From NCBI GenBank assembly GCA_002348045.1, contig DDYO01000253.1, forward strand, positions 1 to 5,887: a DNA stretch of 5,887 bases, read 5' to 3'. Origin of the DNA: Anaerolineales bacterium UBA2232 (lineage in GTDB: Bacteria; Chloroflexota; Anaerolineae; UBA2200). The translations under genes and the position numbers were made by a program. Shown here piece after piece: positions 2 through 5,887 of this stretch (positions are counted from its first letter, which is position 1; each line of letters begins with the position of its first letter). The notes under the pieces were generated by a model that had not been told where the DNA came from, made no database searches, and saw only the letters and a program-made list of their open reading frames with translations.

Positions 2-832
2 CGAGTGGGAGGGATACCGGAGAAGGGCTTGCCGGCGCAGCGGGTGGAGGTACAGGGGACGAAGGGTGCGGTGTTTGGGGTGATCGGGCCGAAGAGCCAT
101 CATGCGACGTCGGCGGATGAAAAGTTCAAAGTAGTGCCGATAGAGCAGTTGTACGTGGATGTGGGAGCGCATACGAAGGCTGAGGCTTTGGAGATGGGGA
201 TCTATGTGGGGAGTCCGGTAACGTATCACGGGTTCTTCCAGGAGATGGCTGGTGGGCAGATTGCGGGCAAGGCGTTTGATAACCGCGGTGGTTGCTTTGT
301 GCTGTTGCAGGTGATGCGGATGCTGACGGCGAAGAAGATACCCGCGACAGTGTACTATGTGGGGTCGGTGCAGGAGGAGTTCAATATTCGCGGTGTGGTG
401 ACGGCTGGCTATGCCATCAAGCCGGACTTGGCCATCGGGCTGGACGGAGGGCTGACGGCCGATACGCCAGACATGAAGCAGTACTTTGACAATCACTTTG
501 GGGGTGGCCCGGTGATCAGTCACTATAGTTTCCATGGTCGTGGCACCCTGAATGGCCTGATTCCCAACCCCAAGTTGCGAGAGCACATGTACCGAGTCGC
601 GAACGAGATGGATATCCCCGTACAATCGTCAGTCTTCCTGGGTGGACTGGGGGAGACATCATACCTGACCGTGGTTGGGGAGGGCATCCCGTGCGTGGAC
701 GTTGGCTTCCCAATGCGTTACAGCCATTCGCCCGCTGAGGTTGCCTATGTGCCCGACATGGAGCGTATGATCAGCCTCCTTGCGGGAGCGATCGAACGCA
801 TGGACTCGAATCTGGACCTGACCAGGGGATAG
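2..832 (+). CDS. M42-family metal-dependent aminopeptidase/hydrolase, SgcX-like (5' end missing)
   Basis: The frame is open to the left edge, so the GTG at position 5 need not be the start. About 75 N-terminal residues are missing relative to the usual ~350 of the M42 family, including the first zinc-ligand motif (HxD). Counting from that GTG, the family's remaining dinuclear metal site is visible: bridging Asp92 in KAFDNRGG, catalytic and ligand Glu124-Glu125 in VQEE, Asp147 in GLDGG, and His241 in RYSHSP near the C-terminus. M42 enzymes are cytoplasmic, often dodecameric aminopeptidases; many are annotated as endoglucanases on weak grounds. Two motifs deviate: QEEFNIRG where QEEVGLRG is usual, and GGLGETSYL where a GGTDA-type loop is usual, so the substrate may not be a peptide. 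It is the first visible gene of an operon with BtpA-like and epimerase-like genes, a context matching E. coli sgcX. The M42 fold is near certain; the substrate is unknown. Confidence 0.9.
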   Translation, partial: RVGGIPEKGLPAQRVEVQGTKGAVFGVIGPKSHHATSADEKFKVVPIEQLYVDVGAHTKAEALEMGIYVGSPVTYHGFFQEMAGGQIAGKAFDNRGGCFVLLQVMRMLTAKKIPATVYYVGSVQEEFNIRGVVTAGYAIKPDLAIGLDGGLTADTPDMKQYFDNHFGGGPVISHYSFHGRGTLNGLIPNPKLREHMYRVANEMDIPVQSSVFLGGLGETSYLTVVGEGIPCVDVGFPMRYSHSPAEVAYVPDMERMISLLAGAIERMDSNLDLTRG

Positions 833-866
833 CCCCTTGGCCATTCGGTGGAAACGAATTCGCAGC

Positions 867-871
867 GGAGG
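867..871 (+). promoter_or_regulatory. Ribosome binding site of the BtpA-family gene
   Basis: GGAGG lies 8 nt before the ATG at 880, inside the 47-nt gap after the M42 gene. It favours ATG 880 over the out-of-frame ATG at 875. No promoter or terminator is evident in the gap, which supports cotranscription. Confidence 0.75.
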
Positions 872-879
872 ACAATGAC

Positions 880-1689
880 ATGAAGTGGTTGCAGGATACG
901 TTTGGGACCAGCCGGCCGATCATCGCTATGTGCCATTTGCACGCTTTCCCCGGTGACCCGGACTATGATGTCCGTACTGGCATGAAGGCCATCGTGGAGG
1001 CCGGGAGGGCTGACCTCAAGGCGTTGCAGGACGGGGGCGTGGATGCGGTGATGTTTTCCAATGAGTACAGCCGGCCCTACATGACCAAGGTGGAGACCGT
1101 TACCGTGGCGGCGATGGCGCGAGTCATTGGAGAGCTCCTGCCCGATGTGCGCATTCCGTTTGGAGTCAATGTGCTGTGGGATGCCCGGGCCTCCCTGGAT
1201 CTGGCCGTGGCCGTGGGTGGGTCGTTCGTCAGGGAGATCTTTAGCGGAGCCTATGCCAGCGATTTCGGCATCTGGAACACGAACTGCGGTGATACGGTGC
1301 GGCATCAGCACGCCATTTCGGCACAGCATGTGAAGCGCCTCTACAATATCTATCCGGAGGCTTCGGCGTACCTGGCACCTCGCTCCCTGGTGGAGATCGC
1401 CAAGTCCACGGTGTTCAATACGCTGCCCGACGGCCTGTGCGTGTCTGGACTCACGGCTGGCGTTGAGACGGACGCGAGCCTGCTCAAACAGGTCAAGGAC
1501 GCGCTGCCGGAGACCCCGATCTTTGCCAACACCGGCGTGCGTGTGGCCAACGTGGAGGCACAGCTCAGCATCGCCGACGGCGCTGTGGTGGGGACAACCT
1601 TCAAGAAGGACGGCTACATCTGGAACCCCGTGGACGTCCAACGCGTGAAGGATTTCATGTCCGCGGTCAAGGCCTTCCGGGACCGTTAG
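880..1689 (+). CDS. BtpA/SgcQ-family TIM-barrel protein
   Basis: The 269-residue product has the length and layout of the BtpA/SgcQ family, a (beta/alpha)8-barrel group. It was named for cyanobacterial BtpA, which affects photosystem I accumulation, but it occurs in many non-photosynthetic bacteria and archaea, where its reaction is not established. Visible family features are the first strand and loop IIAMCHLHAFPGDP (residues 14-27), GGVDAVMFSNEYSRP (52-66), GVNVLWDARASLDLAVAVGG (95-114) followed by FVREIFSGAYASDFGIW (116-132), the late strand IFANTGVRVANVEAQL (214-229), and the phosphate-site-like DGAVVGTTFKKDG (233-245). No signal peptide or membrane segment is present, so it should be cytoplasmic. 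The middle strand (residues 163-180) lacks the aspartate and lysine-histidine pattern I remember from typical members. It lies between an M42 hydrolase and an epimerase, as sgcQ lies between sgcX and sgcE, which points to carbohydrate metabolism. Family call strong; function open. Confidence 0.88.
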   Translation: MKWLQDTFGTSRPIIAMCHLHAFPGDPDYDVRTGMKAIVEAGRADLKALQDGGVDAVMFSNEYSRPYMTKVETVTVAAMARVIGELLPDVRIPFGVNVLWDARASLDLAVAVGGSFVREIFSGAYASDFGIWNTNCGDTVRHQHAISAQHVKRLYNIYPEASAYLAPRSLVEIAKSTVFNTLPDGLCVSGLTAGVETDASLLKQVKDALPETPIFANTGVRVANVEAQLSIADGAVVGTTFKKDGYIWNPVDVQRVKDFMSAVKAFRDR

Positions 1690-2361
1690 GTGCGCAACGT
1701 GATGGTACGGATCGCGCCTTCAATGGCATCAGCGCCGATGGCCTGCCTTCGGGAAGTGATAGGTCAACTGGAGGCGGGCGGAGCGGATGTTGTCCACTTT
1801 GACATCGAAGATGGCACGTTCGTTCCGATGATGACCCTAGGAACGCGGCTCATCGGACAGCTTCGACCCCTGAGCACGCTTCCGTTTGATGTGCATCTGA
1901 TGATGCAGAATCCAGAATGGCTAATCCCAGAGGTGGTTGCTTTAGGGGCTAATTGGGTCTCTGTCCATTGGGAAGCATGTCCCTACCCGCATCGTACACT
2001 GCGCCTCATTCACGAGTTAGGGGCCCGCGCTGGCCTGGCCTTTAATCCTGGGACGCCACTGCCTGACTTGAGGTACTTGGGCGGCGTGCTCGACTTTGTC
2101 CTGGTGCTGACCACCGAGCCGGAGTATCCTGACGCAGCCTTTCTTCCGGAGGTTCTGGACAAGATGCGCCAGGGACGAGCGATGCTGGGCGATGGAGTTG
2201 ACTGGGAGGTGGACGGTGGAATCCACACTGGCAACATCGGTTCGGTGGTGCGCGCTGGAGCCAGCGTAGTCGTCTCGGGTCGTAGCACCTTTCAGAATGG
2301 TTTGGTGGAAGAGAACTTGAGGGCCCTGCGCAGGGCTATTCTGATCGCCACGAGCGTCTAG
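1690..2361 (+). CDS. Ribulose-phosphate 3-epimerase-like protein (SgcE-type, divergent)
   Basis: The 223-residue TIM barrel belongs to the Rpe family, whose members epimerise C3 of ketose phosphates such as ribulose 5-phosphate or allulose 6-phosphate. Visible are IAPS (residues 8-11), metal ligands His36 and Asp38 in VVHFDIEDG (Asp38 also a catalytic acid/base), His69 in DVHLMM, NPGTP (119-123), and Asp175 in EVDGG, the second catalytic acid/base. So the metal site and catalytic pair are intact. Two regions deviate: DIEDG replaces the usual DVMDG, and LTTEPEYPDAAF (140-151) replaces the MSVNPGFGGQ-type loop that closes over the phosphate, suggesting another substrate than ribulose 5-phosphate. 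The GTG start abuts the TAG of the BtpA gene. GTG 1699 or ATG 1702 (giving MVRIAPS) are plausible alternative starts, with a weak AGG at 1688-1690. Start choice is uncertain; the fold is not. Probably the last gene of the operon. Confidence 0.88.
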   Translation: MRNVMVRIAPSMASAPMACLREVIGQLEAGGADVVHFDIEDGTFVPMMTLGTRLIGQLRPLSTLPFDVHLMMQNPEWLIPEVVALGANWVSVHWEACPYPHRTLRLIHELGARAGLAFNPGTPLPDLRYLGGVLDFVLVLTTEPEYPDAAFLPEVLDKMRQGRAMLGDGVDWEVDGGIHTGNIGSVVRAGASVVVSGRSTFQNGLVEENLRALRRAILIATSV

Positions 2362-2442
2362 AGGCAGTGGAGCGCCTGGGCCAACTGTCGCCGAAAGCCG
2401 GGGGCGAACCTCCTAGTGAGAGTTGGGGACCGACTTGAACAG

Positions 2443-2478
2443 CACAAGCGTGGGGGAAGAGAATCCCCCACGCTTGTG
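2443..2478. terminator. Perfect 15-bp inverted repeat between convergent genes, likely bidirectional terminator
   Basis: Arms 2443-2457 and 2464-2478 are perfectly complementary over 15 bp, with a 6-nt loop (AGAGAA) and five consecutive G-C pairs at the loop end. It sits 81 bp after the epimerase stop and 23 bp from the stop of the opposing gene, where a shared terminator is expected. Neither strand has a run of T directly after the stem, so it is not a textbook intrinsic terminator. It may stall polymerase, protect 3' ends or act with Rho. The rest of 2362-2501 shows nothing else I can support. Confidence 0.7.
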
Positions 2479-2501
2479 TAAATTCCCGGAATACTGCTGG
2501 G

Positions 2502-3122
2502 CTAGGCCCGTCGGTTCTTACCCTGCCCCCGACCAGCCCACATTGGACGGCCGTTGGCATCGCGTAGTACGATGGTCTCCCCCGTACTCAGGTTTTCGAT
2601 CTCAGCGGCCTTGAACTCGCCATCTTCGTGATAGCCACTGACTCGGACGCTTGCGCCACTGGACAGCTGATAGCCATTCTCGGTCCAATAGAATCCCGGT
2701 CCACCGCCAACGAGGATCTCCTCACCACCAGCCGTACGTACGACCAGGTCAGCTCCGTCGCTGATCTGAAGTGAGAGAACAGTTCCCTCGACGGTCATCC
2801 AGTCATGGTCTTCGTGCAGACCAGCCTCACCCGCGCCCTGGTCGCCTTGTCTCAAGCCGCGTTCTGGAGCTACGGCGGGCTCACCCTGTCGGTAACCCCG
2901 GCCACCGCCTTGCACAGGTGCATTTGCAGGAGGCTGCGAAAGGGTCCTCGAGTTCCTCCCATTGTATTCTGTTCGTTCCACCGATTCGGCCGCCCATCCT
3001 TGCCGGCCGCGTTCCGCGTCCGCATGAACATCGGCCGGCCGCAGCACAACGTACATGCTACCAATCAACAGGCCGACTCCCATCAGCCCGGCCATAAACA
3101 GCACCGTCTTGTCTCGCCACAT
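2502..3122 (-). CDS. Membrane-anchored extracytoplasmic protein with low-complexity linker and small beta-rich C-terminal domain
   Basis: I do not recognise a named gene. The ATG at 3122 is chosen because AGGAGG lies 7 nt upstream and the product then begins MWRDKTVLF; the longer frame to 3170 overlaps the preceding gene. In the 206-residue product, residues 5-28 form one hydrophobic helix (membrane anchor or uncleaved signal). Residues 30-105 are a Gly/Gln/Arg/Pro-rich, probably disordered linker. Residues 107-197 form a compact domain of alternating strands: MTVEGTVLSLQ, LVVRTAGGEEILVGGGPGFYW, ASVRVSGYHEDGEFKAAEIENL, then ETIVLRDANGRPMWAG. That pattern (strand, charged turn, GxVxVxGxxxxGxFxAxxI) resembles small OB-fold-like domains seen in exported bacterial proteins; this is inference from pattern only. 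It has no haem CxxCH or metal motif. It is cotranscribed with the DUF4405-like membrane gene 31 nt upstream, so the two products may act together at the membrane. Confidence 0.75.
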   Translation of the reverse strand: MWRDKTVLFMAGLMGVGLLIGSMYVVLRPADVHADAERGRQGWAAESVERTEYNGRNSRTLSQPPANAPVQGGGRGYRQGEPAVAPERGLRQGDQGAGEAGLHEDHDWMTVEGTVLSLQISDGADLVVRTAGGEEILVGGGPGFYWTENGYQLSSGASVRVSGYHEDGEFKAAEIENLSTGETIVLRDANGRPMWAGRGQGKNRRA

Positions 3123-3129
3123 GATCTGT

Positions 3130-3135
3130 CCTCCT
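3130..3135 (-). promoter_or_regulatory. Ribosome binding site setting the start of the 2502-3122 gene
   Basis: On the minus strand AGGAGG ends 7 nt before the ATG at 3122. It lies in the 31-nt gap after the stop of the DUF4405-like gene and rules against the longer frame starting at 3170. Confidence 0.8.
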
Positions 3136-3153
3136 AACCTTTCTTTCTCTTGA

Positions 3154-3483
3154 CTAGTTGGTCTCTTCAATCGGACATAGCTGCGCCGGCCTGCTGGACA
3201 GGCGCTTGCTGGAGAGCACTCCGCGGGTCATGCACAAGATCCAGTTCAGGTGCAGGGCCAGGTGCAGGCCCACTCCCGCGGTCATGACCAGGGACGACCA
3301 GGTGTGCAAGTCCCTCCAAGCGTCGTGACCGAGGAAAAGGAACGCCGTGCCGGACAAGGCATTGCGTCCGCCCTGAAAGCCTGCTGGCGCCAGAAGCAAG
3401 GCGATACCGCTCAATGCCGATAGTAGAAAGCCGATGCCGATTACCACATCTACTGCCCAGTTCGTTCTAGCTTTGCTGGACAT
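3154..3483 (-). CDS. DUF4405-like membrane protein, possible b-type cytochrome-like subunit
   Basis: The start is ATG 3483, backed by AGGAGGAG immediately upstream. The frame is open to 3672, but that extension (proline- and charge-rich, no ribosome site) looks non-coding. The 109-residue product has two clear hydrophobic segments, about residues 10-32 (WAVDVVIGIGFLLSALSGIALL) and 62-86 (WSSLVMTAGVGLHLALHLNWIL). Between them lies a polar loop with HDAWRDLHTW. The pattern D in helix 1, SGI, WRxLHxW, then HxxxHxxWI in helix 2 matches the DUF4405 group of integral membrane proteins. His60, His74 and His78 are spaced like haem ligands of cytochrome b561/FdnI-type proteins, so haem binding and electron transfer are possible but not shown. 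It is the first gene of a two-gene unit with the exported protein at 2502-3122. Family call likely; role unknown. Confidence 0.8.
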   Translation of the reverse strand: MSSKARTNWAVDVVIGIGFLLSALSGIALLLAPAGFQGGRNALSGTAFLFLGHDAWRDLHTWSSLVMTAGVGLHLALHLNWILCMTRGVLSSKRLSSRPAQLCPIEETN

Positions 3484-3491
3484 CTTGGTTA

Positions 3492-3499
3492 CTCCTCCT
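3492..3499 (-). promoter_or_regulatory. Ribosome binding site setting the start of the DUF4405-like gene
   Basis: On the minus strand AGGAGGAG ends 8 nt before ATG 3483. This strong site shortens the gene by 63 codons relative to its longest open frame. Confidence 0.8.
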
Positions 3500-3517
3500 G
3501 TAGTTCGATCTATGAAC

Positions 3518-3523
3518 ATCTTA
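3518..3523 (-). promoter_or_regulatory. Possible -10 element for the DUF4405-like two-gene unit
   Basis: TAAGAT on the minus strand lies 34 nt before ATG 3483, a sensible distance for a promoter. No convincing -35 box sits at 16-18 bp (ACATTT is the hexamer 17 bp away), so the call is weak. The rest of 3524-3730 contains no gene, RNA or repeat I can support. Confidence 0.25.
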
Positions 3524-3730
3524 CCAGGCAACTGTGCTGCAAATGTGAGGAGAAGATGGTGAGATCGTGAATTCTCTGGGCTTGAGCGGTGCTCGCAGAT
3601 ACGTGGGAAGACAGGGGACAGCCTCGGACCTGGCGTCGGGCCTGAGGGAGCAACGAGCCCAACGGCGGCCAATCGGAAACGAGGACTAGGATCGCAGAGT
3701 GCGGTAGAGAGCTTCCCGTCCTAACATAAG

Positions 3731-3763
3731 GGGAGACCTGGGCTCTTGGGCCACAGGCCTCCC
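3731..3763 (-). terminator. Likely transcription terminator of gpmA
   Basis: The arms are GGGAG-a-CCTG-GGC (3731-3743) and GCC-a-CAGG-c-CTCCC (3750-3763) around the loop TCTTGG, giving 12 base pairs with one mismatch and one bulge. It begins 19 nt beyond the gpmA stop in the transcribed direction and, on the minus strand, is followed by CTTATGTTAG, a modest T-rich tail. The position fits gpmA termination and separates it from the DUF4405 unit downstream. Confidence 0.6.
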
Positions 3764-3782
3764 GTCGTCGCGGTGGAAGGGT

Positions 3783-4532
3783 CTAGCTCTTGGTTTTCCC
3801 TTGATTGGCGACGGCCTCCATCGCCTTGCGGATCTGCTCTGGATCGCCCAGATAATAGTTCCTGATGGGCTTCAGGTCAGAGTCCAGCTCGTACACCAGA
3901 GGCATCCCGGTGGGGATGTTCAGCCCCACGATGTCCTGGTCCGAGATGTTGTCCAGGTGCTTCACCAGCGCACGCAGGCTGTTGCCATGGGCGGCAATGA
4001 CCACTTTCTGGCCTGACTTGATCACGGGAACAATCGTCTCGTGCCAGTAGGGCAGGAAGCGTGCTACGGTATCCTTCAAGCATTCGGTGGTGGGGACCTC
4101 CTCGGGCCTGAGGTCCTTGTAACGCGGGTCATTGCCGGGATAGCGTGGGTCACTGGGCTCCAGGGGTGGCGGGGGAATGTCGTAGCTTCGCCGCCAGATC
4201 AGCACCTGCTGCTCCCCGTACCGGGCTGCCATTTCGGCCTTGTTAAGCCCTTGGAGCGATCCGTAGTGTCGCTCGTTGAGCCGCCACGAGCGGTGGACTG
4301 GAATCCACATCAGGTCCATTTCATCCAGCACGATCCACAGTGAGCGAATCGCCCTCTTGAGCACGGAAGTGTACGCCACATCGAAAGAAAAACCCTCGGC
4401 CTTGAGGAGCTGCCCCCCCTTCAGGGCCTCCTCTCTGCCACGTTCAGTTAGATCTACATCGGTCCATCCGGTGAAGCGATTCTCCTTGTTCCACGTGCTT
4501 TCGCCGTGCCGGATCAAGACTACCTTGTACAT
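3783..4532 (-). CDS. gpmA: 2,3-bisphosphoglycerate-dependent phosphoglycerate mutase
   Basis: The enzyme interconverts 3-phosphoglycerate and 2-phosphoglycerate in cytoplasmic glycolysis and gluconeogenesis through a phosphohistidine. The start is ATG 4532, with GGAGG 7 nt upstream; the frame extends to 4634 but that part carries the promoter. The 249 residues match the family's usual ~250. Visible are the nucleophile in [10 protein letters not shown] (His9, Arg8), [14 protein letters not shown] (19-32), [10 protein letters not shown] (55-64, Arg60), the acid Glu87 in [15 protein letters not shown], and the second catalytic histidine His182 in [25 protein letters not shown] (206-216) and the C-terminal YYLGDPEQI (227-235) are also typical of GpmA. 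All catalytic residues are present and the gene appears intact. It has its own promoter and terminator, so it is probably monocistronic although it follows the PrsW-like gene on the same strand. Confidence 0.97.
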
Positions 4533-4539
4533 TGCAGCG

Positions 4540-4544
4540 CCTCC
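4540..4544 (-). promoter_or_regulatory. Ribosome binding site of gpmA
   Basis: GGAGG on the minus strand, 7 nt before ATG 4532. It fixes the start at [10 protein letters not shown], which aligns with GpmA proteins, and excludes the 34-codon upstream extension. Confidence 0.8.
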
Positions 4545-4605
4545 AGATTGGGTTGCCGAACAGGGACTTGTGTATGATGGCCTCACACGCAGGCCCCAAT
4601 GTGCC

Positions 4606-4634
4606 ATTATACCGTGCCTGTGGCCATCGCACAA
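4606..4634 (-). promoter_or_regulatory. Sigma-70-type promoter of gpmA
   Basis: On the minus strand a perfect TATAAT (4606-4611) is preceded, 17 bp upstream, by TTGTGC (4629-4634), which keeps the TTG core of the -35 consensus. Transcription would start near 4599, giving a leader of about 65 nt before ATG 4532. The 171-bp gap after the PrsW-like gene fits an independent promoter. Confidence 0.65.
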
Positions 4635-4651
4635 AGAGATGTTGTTCTTCC

Positions 4652-4675
4652 GATGGGGATGGGGATGCTGATGGT
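4652..4675. repeat. Four imperfect tandem hexamers (GATGGN-like)
   Basis: GATGGG, GATGGG, GATGCT and GATGGT follow each other without spacing, 17 bp upstream of the gpmA -35 element and outside any gene. It could be a small simple-sequence tract or a regulator or polymerase contact region; the function is not known. Confidence 0.45.
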
Positions 4676-4703
4676 CCGATTGCCTCTAGTGGTGCAGGGG
4701 TGG

Positions 4704-5687
4704 TCAGGCGAAAGGCGCAGGGGTACGCAGTCTGGCAATGCGCGCGCGCAGCGCATTCGCTGCTGGAAGGTCGTTCTGCTCCAGCTTGAAGGCGAGTTCG
4801 GTGGCCCACTGGGCCAGGTCTCGCAATCGACTGGCCTCTGCATGTCCGCCTCGGGCCAACGCTCGCCACTGAGCTGCCAGACGCTTGCGATATGAGCCGA
4901 CCATTTCATACTCGTCTTGCGTGAGCACCCCATTCGCTACCTCGGACAGCAGGTGAGACCTGATCCATAGCTTTTCCTTCTGCCAGGCCAGTAGGAGCAC
5001 AACCAGCATTACGACCAGGCCTGCCCAGTCACTGATCAGACTCAGAAGCAAGCTGTAGCAAGTAACATCTGCCAGAGATGCGAACAGGTTGTGCAAGATG
5101 TGCAGGACAACCGCACCACCCAATCCGAGCAGCGCCAAAGCAAAGCGCCGGAACCAGCTCCTGGTGGTACGCGCATAGCCCAGAGCGGCCCCGAAGACCG
5201 AGGAGAAGAGGGCATGGTTTAGCCCAAACAGCAGGCCGCGAAGAAGCACCAGGACAGTCAACTGCTCCATGCCTCCCGCCTGATAGCCTTGGAAGAAGTA
5301 AAGCAGGTTCTCGGTCATGGCAAAACCGAATCCGACAGTGGCCCCATAGATGATTCCATCGAGAACGTCGTCGAACTCGGAATGGAACAGGAAAAAGATG
5401 AGCACGACGGCGATGCCCTTGGCGGCCTCTTCCACTATCGGGGCAATCAGAGAGCTAAGAACCAGAGCGGAGCTTGCTTCGTCCCAGATGGTAAAGGGCT
5501 GGCCCAACAGGGTCTCGGCGACAACTGAAACGACAACCGCCGGCAGCGCTCCCCAGACAAAGGCGGATGCCAGAAGCAGCCGGGGTTCCTGCTCATAGCG
5601 ATCGAACCACCAGAGCACCCAAACGTACAGGAGTGTTGGAATGACCGCTGAAAGGACAACCAAGGCCAGTGCGGTGGTGTCGTCCAC
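4704..5687 (-). CDS. PrsW-like intramembrane metalloprotease
   Basis: The 327-residue product is a polytopic membrane protein of the PrsW family, whose founding member, B. subtilis PrsW, cleaves an anti-sigma factor within or near the membrane. Visible are the N-terminal helix ending WFDRYEQEP (27-35), glutamates of PIVEEAAKG (Glu86, Glu87), DGIIYGATVGFGFAMTEN (110-127, Glu126), His158 in LNHALFSS, and His196/His199 in LHILHN. These are the family's conserved putative zinc-site and catalytic residues. Hydrophobic segments lie near 6-27, 38-60, 74-101, 112-133, 143-170, 181-204 and 211-235. After the last one, residues 236-327 form a charged, helical, probably cytoplasmic tail. The start is GTG 5687, with AGGAG 10 nt upstream inside the end of the PHP gene, only 6 nt after that gene's stop. 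No anti-sigma factor is nearby, so the substrate is unknown. Confidence 0.9.
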   Translation of the reverse strand: MDDTTALALVVLSAVIPTLLYVWVLWWFDRYEQEPRLLLASAFVWGALPAVVVSVVAETLLGQPFTIWDEASSALVLSSLIAPIVEEAAKGIAVVLIFFLFHSEFDDVLDGIIYGATVGFGFAMTENLLYFFQGYQAGGMEQLTVLVLLRGLLFGLNHALFSSVFGAALGYARTTRSWFRRFALALLGLGGAVVLHILHNLFASLADVTCYSLLLSLISDWAGLVVMLVVLLLAWQKEKLWIRSHLLSEVANGVLTQDEYEMVGSYRKRLAAQWRALARGGHAEASRLRDLAQWATELAFKLEQNDLPAANALRARIARLRTPAPFA

Positions 5688-5693
5688 CTACCT

Positions 5694-5887
5694 CTATCTC
5701 CTCTGGAGCTTGGCCCACGTTGAGGACAGATGGACGTGTGGGGAGCTGATGCCTCCACCGATGCGCCCCGTCGCAAGCTTTAGCAGGAACTCGACCGATC
5801 CCACAAAGGGGTCCATCTCGACGTAGGCGCCGCCAATCTCATGGGCGGTATGGGCATCACTCCCCGCGCCGGCAGCGATGCCTCCGT
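5694..5887 (-). CDS. PHP-domain metal-dependent phosphoesterase (C-terminal 63 codons only)
   Basis: The gene enters from the right edge and ends at TAG 5694-5696; 63 codons are visible with no start. The fragment contains GAGSDAHTAHEIGGAYVEM, the final metal-binding motif of PHP-domain proteins (GSDAH, Asp and His as ligands, then the EIG turn). A tail with SPHVHLSSTWAKL, also seen at the end of PHP phosphoesterases, follows. The PHP group includes histidinol phosphatase, polymerase-linked domains and stand-alone phosphoesterases hydrolysing phosphate esters with two or three metal ions. Which type this is cannot be told from the fragment. It precedes the PrsW-like gene by 6 nt and carries that gene's ribosome site, so the two are probably translated as a coupled pair. 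Confidence 0.82.
   Translation of the reverse strand, partial: GGIAAGAGSDAHTAHEIGGAYVEMDPFVGSVEFLLKLATGRIGGGISSPHVHLSSTWAKLQRR
5698..5702 (-). promoter_or_regulatory. Ribosome binding site of the PrsW-like gene, inside the PHP gene
   Basis: AGGAG on the minus strand lies in the last two sense codons of the PHP gene, 10 nt before GTG 5687. A second GAGG at 5691-5694 is only 3 nt from the start and probably too close. The arrangement implies translational coupling. Confidence 0.6.

What the first reader, a model, noticed from the sequence alone, without database searches (positions are those of the whole stretch)
2..2361. sgcX-sgcQ-sgcE-like operon without PTS genes
An M42 hydrolase, a BtpA/SgcQ-family barrel and an Rpe-like epimerase follow each other on one strand with gaps of 47 and 0 nt. 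These are the three non-transport enzyme types of the E. coli sgc locus (order sgcX, then PTS genes, sgcQ, PTS gene, sgcE), whose substrate is unknown. Finding the same trio in the same order but packed together without PTS components suggests that the three proteins form a pathway for an unusual sugar or glycosyl compound and that uptake is interchangeable. A different transporter, for example ABC, may lie to the left of the window.
Basis: partly seen in the sequence, partly recalled or inferred. Interest (0 to 1): 0.7.

Follow-up and report, generated by a model that had tools for sequence, protein, structure and literature searches.

The report
End of an sgc-type sugar operon
Three neighbouring enzyme genes from an uncultured Chloroflexota-like bacterium look like the end of the same sugar-uptake operon whose substrate has never been found in E. 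coli; relatives suggest that the sugar-import genes lie just beyond the edge of the window rather than being absent.

Summary
In detail: a partial M42 hydrolase (2-832), a BtpA/SgcQ protein (880-1689) and an Rpe-like epimerase (ending at 2361) lie on one strand; a strong hairpin follows. They fall with the SgcX, SgcQ and SgcE lines, not with general M42 paralogues, photosystem BtpA or housekeeping Rpe. The epimerase shares a signature with E. coli SgcE (Glu for Met, EP[ED] for the NPGFGGQ loop, GR for GS). In 298 genomes of the class of L025 (titled Anaerolineae) this epimerase type was found 5 times, each time near an SgcQ-type BtpA and galactitol-type PTS genes. So 'without PTS genes' is probably an edge effect: the window starts inside M42, and the nearest fetched relative (L136) reads DeoR-EIIA-EIIC-EIIB-UroD-SDR-M42-BtpA-epimerase. 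Over 93 SgcQ-type loci the epimerase goes with a PTS in 15 of 16; 62 of 93 have an FGGY kinase near, only 2 of these with the epimerase; M42 (21) and M29 (32) never occur together. The loci are related, and the tree-aware test is underpowered. Substrate and SgcQ chemistry remain unknown. New member of a known, unsolved kind; the survey makes the sgc question more testable.

The parts
2..832 (+). SgcX-type M42 metallo-hydrolase, 5' end outside the window (about 90 residues missing)
   Evidence: Pfam PF05343 214.9 bits; 43% identical to E. coli SgcX; groups with BtpA-linked M42s, apart from most genome paralogues; the metal-site columns that fall in the window (D, EE, D, H) are present (roles recalled)
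866..870 (+). likely ribosome-binding site (GGAGG) of the BtpA gene
   Evidence: read from the sequence; inference
880..1689 (+). SgcQ-type BtpA family protein, phosphate-binding-type TIM barrel
   Evidence: PF03437 291.9 bits; 61% identical to SgcQ; not PSI BtpA, 136.7 bits vs cut-off 400; model pLDDT 90.6, best fold matches KDPG/KDPGal aldolases, tied with other phosphate barrels
1702..2361 (+). SgcE-type ribulose-phosphate-epimerase-like enzyme (start ATG 1702 more likely than GTG 1690)
   Evidence: PF00834 189.9 bits; below the Rpe equivalog cut-off; E40, EPE, GR signature shared with SgcE; tree
2442..2479 (+). 16-bp hairpin between the operon and the genes of the other strand; probable 3' end of the operon
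   Evidence: fold of 2425-2500: -36.3 kcal/mol, z -5.5, 0 of 200 shuffles as good; no T run, not found by the terminator scan

Best explanation
The window holds the last three genes of an sgc-type, PTS-fed catabolic operon of an uncultured Chloroflexota (Anaerolineae-like) bacterium, cut at its left edge. Upstream, unseen, there should be a DeoR-type regulator and galactitol-family PTS genes (EIIA, EIIB, EIIC), possibly a sugar dehydrogenase. Proposed working: the PTS imports and phosphorylates a polyol or sugar (or a conjugate of one); the SgcX-type M42 metallo-hydrolase cuts an amide-like bond of the imported compound; the SgcQ barrel acts on the phosphorylated sugar; the SgcE-type epimerase inverts C3 of a ketose phosphate so that the product can enter the pentose phosphate or glycolytic pool. 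Shown: family and subfamily membership, gene linkage in relatives, conserved metal-site residues, phosphate-barrel fold of the SgcQ model. Inferred: presence of the PTS in this organism, all substrates and the order of steps.
For: Nearest fetched relative L136: DeoR-EIIA-EIIC-EIIB-UroD-SDR-M42-BtpA-epimerase, its M42, BtpA and epimerase 68, 77 and 71% identical to the window's. In 298 genomes of L025's class, Rpe hits over 340 bits are 5 and the next has 234 bits; all 5 lie within 4 kb of an SgcQ-type BtpA, with an EIIC gene in the cluster. Over 93 loci without the window, epimerase and EIIC-GAT: 14 both, 2 epimerase only, 0 EIIC only, 77 neither; one of the 2 (L005) does have an EIIC-GAT by Pfam. 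All 9 epimerase-bearing genomes tested have a further Rpe-family gene, in 8 of 9 with a higher family score than the cluster copy, so this copy looks specialised. The window's BtpA sits in a clade (96) with three PTS loci. The window's M42 is not among the 120 listed protein-database hits, whose best is 70% identical, although its BtpA and epimerase are listed at 100% on an 8,304-base contig, as expected if the contig ends inside M42. Named close hits of BtpA and epimerase are mostly Anaerolineae/Chloroflexi.
Against: No PTS gene has been seen in this organism. The loci are related: on the BtpA tree only 2 independent pairs lie on well-supported branches, both mostly in agreement but too few to test; the tool counted 8 pairs on all branches, which were not tested. 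One epimerase locus (L054) has an ABC system and no PTS found. M42 is missing from 4 of the 16 epimerase loci (L005, L011, L076, L145), of which L005 is cut 1 kb downstream and L076 1.8 kb upstream of BtpA. In 4 Bacillaceae loci the epimerase is of the ordinary Rpe type. E. coli sgcC and sgcX deletions show no growth defect on the carbon sources tried (PMC13343008, passages).
Confidence: 0.78

Rival explanations
1. The operon is of the other kind: ABC importer and FGGY kinase upstream, with the epimerase as an extra.
For: M42 directly before BtpA, after an FGGY kinase, is seen in Paenibacillaceae loci L009, L042, L052, L067, L079; K1 is near in 62 of 93 loci; L054 has epimerase, M42 and an ABC system; L139 has both PTS and a xylulokinase.
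Against: Epimerase and K1 occur together in only 2 of 93 loci (L136, L139), both also with PTS, and in L136 the kinase is on the other strand. The window's M42 and BtpA are nearest to L136 and L001; the epimerase is nearest to database proteins of unknown context and then to L001 (L136 was not in that tree).
Confidence: 0.1
2. A chance row of three unrelated genes: general aminopeptidase, BtpA and housekeeping Rpe.
For: The epimerase is only 34% identical to SgcE, and M42 genes are plentiful: of 39 M42 matches in 9 genomes, 26 scored 222-324 bits, below the cluster copies.
Against: Subfamily trees and scores put all three with BtpA-linked relatives; the three families recur together in Chloroflexota, Bacillota and E. 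coli; the epimerase lacks the Rpe loop.
Confidence: 0.03
3. The trio works without its own transporter: it salvages an internal sugar phosphate (a repair or recycling module), and the PTS linkage of relatives is secondary.
For: PTS genes change place: in L001 a second EIIB-EIIC pair stands between M42 and BtpA, in L136 the PTS genes are upstream; E. coli sgc responds to nitrogen-containing, slow-growth conditions and not to a known sugar (PMC13343008, passages).
Against: All 15 non-window loci with an EIIC within 8.5 kb of SgcQ also have the epimerase, and 15 of 16 the reverse.
Confidence: 0.09

Closest known systems
Escherichia coli K-12 sgc locus (sgcX-sgcB-sgcC-sgcQ-sgcA-sgcE-sgcR)
   Same: SgcX, SgcQ and SgcE homologues in the order X, Q, E on one strand; SgcE signature residues; SgcQ 61% identical
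   Different: No PTS gene between X, Q and E; in L136 the PTS is upstream and an SDR and a UroD-family gene are added; epimerase only 34% identical
SgcQ-type BtpA clusters with an FGGY kinase, often an Rbs-type ABC importer and an M29 or M42 hydrolase (L002, L009, L020, L080 and others)
   Same: SgcQ-type BtpA; M42 next to BtpA in several
   Different: FGGY kinase in place of PTS phosphorylation; epimerase in only 2 of 62 loci with the kinase; M29 in place of M42 in many
Ribulose-phosphate 3-epimerase (Rpe) and D-allulose-6-phosphate 3-epimerase (AlsE)
   Same: Family and the residues H36, D38, H69, D175 (that they hold the metal is recalled)
   Different: Met replaced by Glu, the NPGFGGQ loop by EPE, GS (GT in AlsE) by GR; below both equivalog cut-offs
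Galactitol (gat) PTS operon
   Same: Transporter family of the relatives is EIIC-GAT
   Different: Gat has no BtpA, M42 or Rpe-type enzyme (recalled)

Membership tests
sgc-type operon | SgcQ-type BtpA | tested here: met
   61% identity to SgcQ; 482 bits to the model of the scanned BtpA loci, E. coli SgcQ itself 485
sgc-type operon | SgcE-type epimerase (signature and clade) | tested here: met
   E40, EPE, GR; window clade and SgcE clade on one side of a branch with support 96, apart from Ec_Rpe and AlsE (quick tree)
sgc-type operon | SgcX-type M42 hydrolase | tested here: met
   43% to SgcX over 262 aa; in one group with 18 BtpA-linked M42s including SgcX, support only 81 (quick tree); gene incomplete
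sgc-type operon | galactitol-type PTS EIIA, EIIB, EIIC in the operon | tested here: inconclusive
   none in the window, which starts inside M42; EIIC and EIIB present in 5 of 5 loci with this epimerase among 298 genomes
sgc-type operon | DeoR-family regulator next to the operon | tested here: inconclusive
   not in the window; present in L136, L025, L139, L145
photosystem I biogenesis BtpA | NCBIfam equivalog NF045918 cut-off 400 bits | tested here: not met
   136.7 bits
housekeeping ribulose-phosphate 3-epimerase | TIGR01163 equivalog cut-off 212.6 bits and NPGFGGQ / GS loops | tested here: not met
   181.6 bits; loops replaced; the 15 next-best Rpe loci of the class (L161-L175) all keep Met and GS (14) or GT (1)
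D-allulose-6-phosphate 3-epimerase (AlsE) | NF007266 equivalog cut-off 271 bits | tested here: not met
   114.4 bits
ABC/FGGY-kinase-type SgcQ cluster | FGGY kinase and ABC importer beside BtpA | tested here: inconclusive
   neither in the window; left side not visible
KDPG/KDPGal-type aldolases (for SgcQ) | catalytic lysine on a barrel strand (recalled) | tested here: inconclusive

The most novel reading that the evidence does not exclude
SgcQ/BtpA is the core of one catabolic module with two interchangeable front ends: PTS plus an SgcE-type epimerase of new specificity, or ABC importer plus FGGY kinase without epimerase. The mutual exclusion of two unrelated metallo-aminopeptidase folds (M42 or M29) means that the natural substrate carries an amide-linked amino acid, for example an aminoacyl- or peptidyl-polyol or sugar, which would explain why E. 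coli sgc has never been matched to a plain sugar.
Probability: 0.25. Interest if true: 0.68.

Novelty: new member of a known kind. Interest (0 to 1): 0.42.

Why it matters
The E. coli sgc operon has no known substrate: a 2026 transcriptome study still calls its function putative and found no growth defect in deletions (PMC13343008, passages). Finding that its three enzymes recur as a unit in Chloroflexota and Bacillota, that the epimerase has its own sequence signature at positions that in Rpe line the active site (recalled), and that BtpA clusters come in a PTS form and a kinase form gives concrete enzymes and contrasts with which to look for the substrate and for the reaction of the BtpA family, for which sequence searches found no solved structure.

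Tried and rejected
Ordinary-enzyme reading (general aminopeptidase, PSI BtpA, housekeeping Rpe): rejected by NCBIfam cut-offs, trees and loop residues.

A transporter gene inside the window: none found; the genes at 2502-5885 are on the other strand and of other families.

The only evidence on the contig is the protein listings.

Function of SgcQ from structure: the AlphaFold model matches many phosphate-binding TIM barrels with tied scores, so no reaction can be read off; the sequence-profile hits to solved structures are not significant or not meaningful (ribosome-recycling factor 0.004, TrpA 0.044 and weaker).

Phylogeny-aware tests: the PTS state changes 8 times on the BtpA tree (the five commonest values in 200 shuffles were 11-15), but only 2 independent pairs lie on well-supported branches, too few for a test; M42 against M29 gave 4 pairs, mostly without a difference. 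The Fisher p-values are therefore descriptive only. All trees are quick trees (SH-aLRT, no bootstrap).

A scan of 291 genomes of the class of G008 (the genome of L066, Eubacterium callanderi) added nothing: the SgcE-type epimerase stands out only in the seed genome (288.8 bits, next 231.8), and SgcQ-type BtpA was found in 3 of 291, so 2 genomes have it without a comparable epimerase hit.

My first neighbourhood HMM for EIIC missed L005; Pfam and a rebuilt HMM found it. The rebuilt HMM also gave two weak EIIC-like matches in L080 (36 and 34 bits), about 9 kb or more from its BtpA and outside the range counted. My first ORF choice hid the window's BtpA under an antisense ORF; one search corrected that.

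Literature: searches with terms for SgcQ/SgcX/SgcE, BtpA/COG0434, BtpA with FGGY and aminopeptidase, BtpA phrases, galactitol PTS with M42 and epimerase, sgc operon, BtpA with xylulokinase or PTS, and SgcE listed no title or abstract start that describes this module outside E. coli. Three listings were partial (20 of 38, 15 of 92, 15 of 854 papers). Only open-licence papers are held, so older subscription work on sgc (recalled, not seen) is not covered. PMC13343008 was read as passages (12 of 15 places); all other papers were seen only in listings.
Full report
What is there. The window (5,887 bases) carries, on the + strand, the 3' part of an M42 hydrolase gene (2-832), a complete BtpA-family gene (880-1689) and a complete Rpe-like gene ending at 2361. 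The gap of 47 nt is right; the gap of 0 nt is probably 12, because L001, L025 and most other aligned relatives begin at the methionine encoded at 1702. A 16-bp hairpin follows at 2442-2479 (z -5.5; no T run), and the next genes are on the other strand. So the operon probably ends with the epimerase, and anything missing would lie to the left. The named close database hits of BtpA and epimerase are mostly Anaerolineae or Chloroflexi.

Which subfamilies. The BtpA protein is 61% identical to E. coli SgcQ over 267 residues and far below the cut-off for photosystem BtpA (136.7 of 400 bits). The M42 fragment is 43% identical to SgcX over 262 residues. In a quick tree it joins L136 and L001 (99) and, more widely, the BtpA-linked M42s and SgcX (18 other rows, support 81), apart from most M42 paralogues of the same genomes. 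In G091 and G100, which were not used to build the M42 model, the cluster copy scores 525 and 469 bits and the best other M42 264 and 275. The epimerase is only 34% identical to SgcE and falls below the Rpe and AlsE equivalog cut-offs. Its clade stands beside the SgcE clade, on one side of a branch with support 96 from E. coli Rpe and AlsE. All 9 epimerase-bearing genomes tested have a further Rpe-family gene; in 8 of 9 one of these scores higher than the cluster copy (the exception is G009).

An epimerase signature. Window and E. coli SgcE share Glu where Rpe has Met (window residue 40), EP[ED] where Rpe has NPG of NPGFGGQ (143-145), and GR where Rpe has GS (197-198), while H36, D38, H69 and D175, which in Rpe hold the metal (recalled), are kept. 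Of the 16 non-window loci with an epimerase near SgcQ-type BtpA, 12 carry the signature; the 4 that do not (L013, L043, L044, L046, all Bacillaceae) have Ile, NPGFGGQ and GS and fall among ordinary Rpe in the tree where tested (L013 and L043). Among the best 20 epimerase-profile loci of the class of L025, the first 5 carry Glu and GR and the other 15 carry Met with GS (14) or GT (1). So an ordinary Rpe lineage seems to have been recruited separately into the same place in Bacillaceae.

Conserved neighbourhood. Within 8.5 kb of BtpA: epimerase 16, EIIC-GAT 14, FGGY kinase 62, Rbs-type permease 28, MalF-type permease 14, M42 21, M29 32, M42 and M29 together 0. Epimerase and EIIC: 14 both, 2 epimerase only, 0 EIIC only, 77 neither. 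L005, one of the 2, has an EIIC-GAT gene by Pfam and by a rebuilt model, so 15 of 16. The exception is L054 (Hungatella), with an ABC permease. Epimerase and FGGY kinase meet in 2 loci, L136 and L139. Epimerase, M42 and BtpA meet in 12 of 93; M42 is missing from L005, L011, L076 and L145, two of which are cut close to BtpA. Not all loci show 8.5 kb on both sides; among 64 with more than 6 kb on each side the epimerase/EIIC counts are 13, 1, 0, 50.

One class in depth. In 298 genomes of the class of G002 (the genome of L025, titled Anaerolineae; an even draw), SgcQ-type BtpA over 430 bits occurs at 17 places and the SgcE-type epimerase over 340 bits at 5 (G001, G002, G026, G091, G100); the next Rpe hit has 234 bits. 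Sequences of G001 and G002 were in the query alignment; the other three were not knowingly included. All 5 lie within 4 kb of an SgcQ-type BtpA and have EIIC-GAT and EIIB genes in the cluster (EIIC of L001 and L136 also by Pfam). M42 is in 4 of these 5 clusters; in G026 the best M42 (400 bits) is on a separate 3.8-kb contig.

What lies to the left. Of the five loci compared, L136 is nearest by BtpA (77%) and M42 (68%) and second by epimerase (71%; L001 72%). Its order is DeoR-EIIA-EIIC-EIIB-UroD-SDR-M42-BtpA-epimerase, with the last three about as tightly packed as in the window. L001 has a further EIIB-EIIC pair between M42 and BtpA; L025 has DeoR and EIIC upstream and EIIA, EIIB downstream. 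I therefore expect PTS genes just beyond the left edge. The window's BtpA and epimerase are in the protein database on an 8,304-base contig, but its M42 is not among the 120 listed hits, whose best is 70% identical, as would happen if the contig ends inside M42; this is inference.

Limits. The loci are related to one another: on the BtpA tree the PTS state changes 8 times, but only 2 independent pairs are on well-supported branches. The neighbourhood models were built from the same loci, and a family found near need not be in one operon. The scan of the class of G008 was uninformative. E. coli sgc has no growth phenotype in the study read (PMC13343008, passages).

Verdict. Observation confirmed; interpretation partly supported. 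It is a new member, in a Chloroflexota-like organism, of the known but unsolved sgc kind of operon. The absence of PTS genes is most likely an edge effect.

Noticed in passing
L151 (G001:C12:236839-255839), 8526-10967: A second BtpA of another subfamily (236 bits to the SgcQ-type model) packed with EIIB, EIIA and an Rpe of near-ordinary signature (Met, PGFGGQ, GT): the BtpA-PTS-Rpe link exists outside the SgcQ line.
   Followed up: partly
G001:C22:78227-82468; G091:C7:14538-18802; G100:C113:2817-5907: Tandem arrays of four, four and three M42 genes in genomes of the class of L025.
   Followed up: no
L034: A contig titled Bacteroidetes shares neighbours with Chloroflexota loci L029 and L049 and sits with them in the BtpA tree; probably misbinned.
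   Followed up: no
window 2502-5885, - strand: Unknown protein (2502-3170), DUF4405 protein (3154-3672), phosphoglycerate mutase GpmA over cut-off (3783-4634), PrsW-like protein (4704-5687), end of a PHP-associated protein (5694-5885).
   Followed up: partly
L139 13873-15372: A xylulokinase over its cut-off ends a PTS-BtpA-epimerase cluster that also has two EIIC and two EIIB genes.
   Followed up: no
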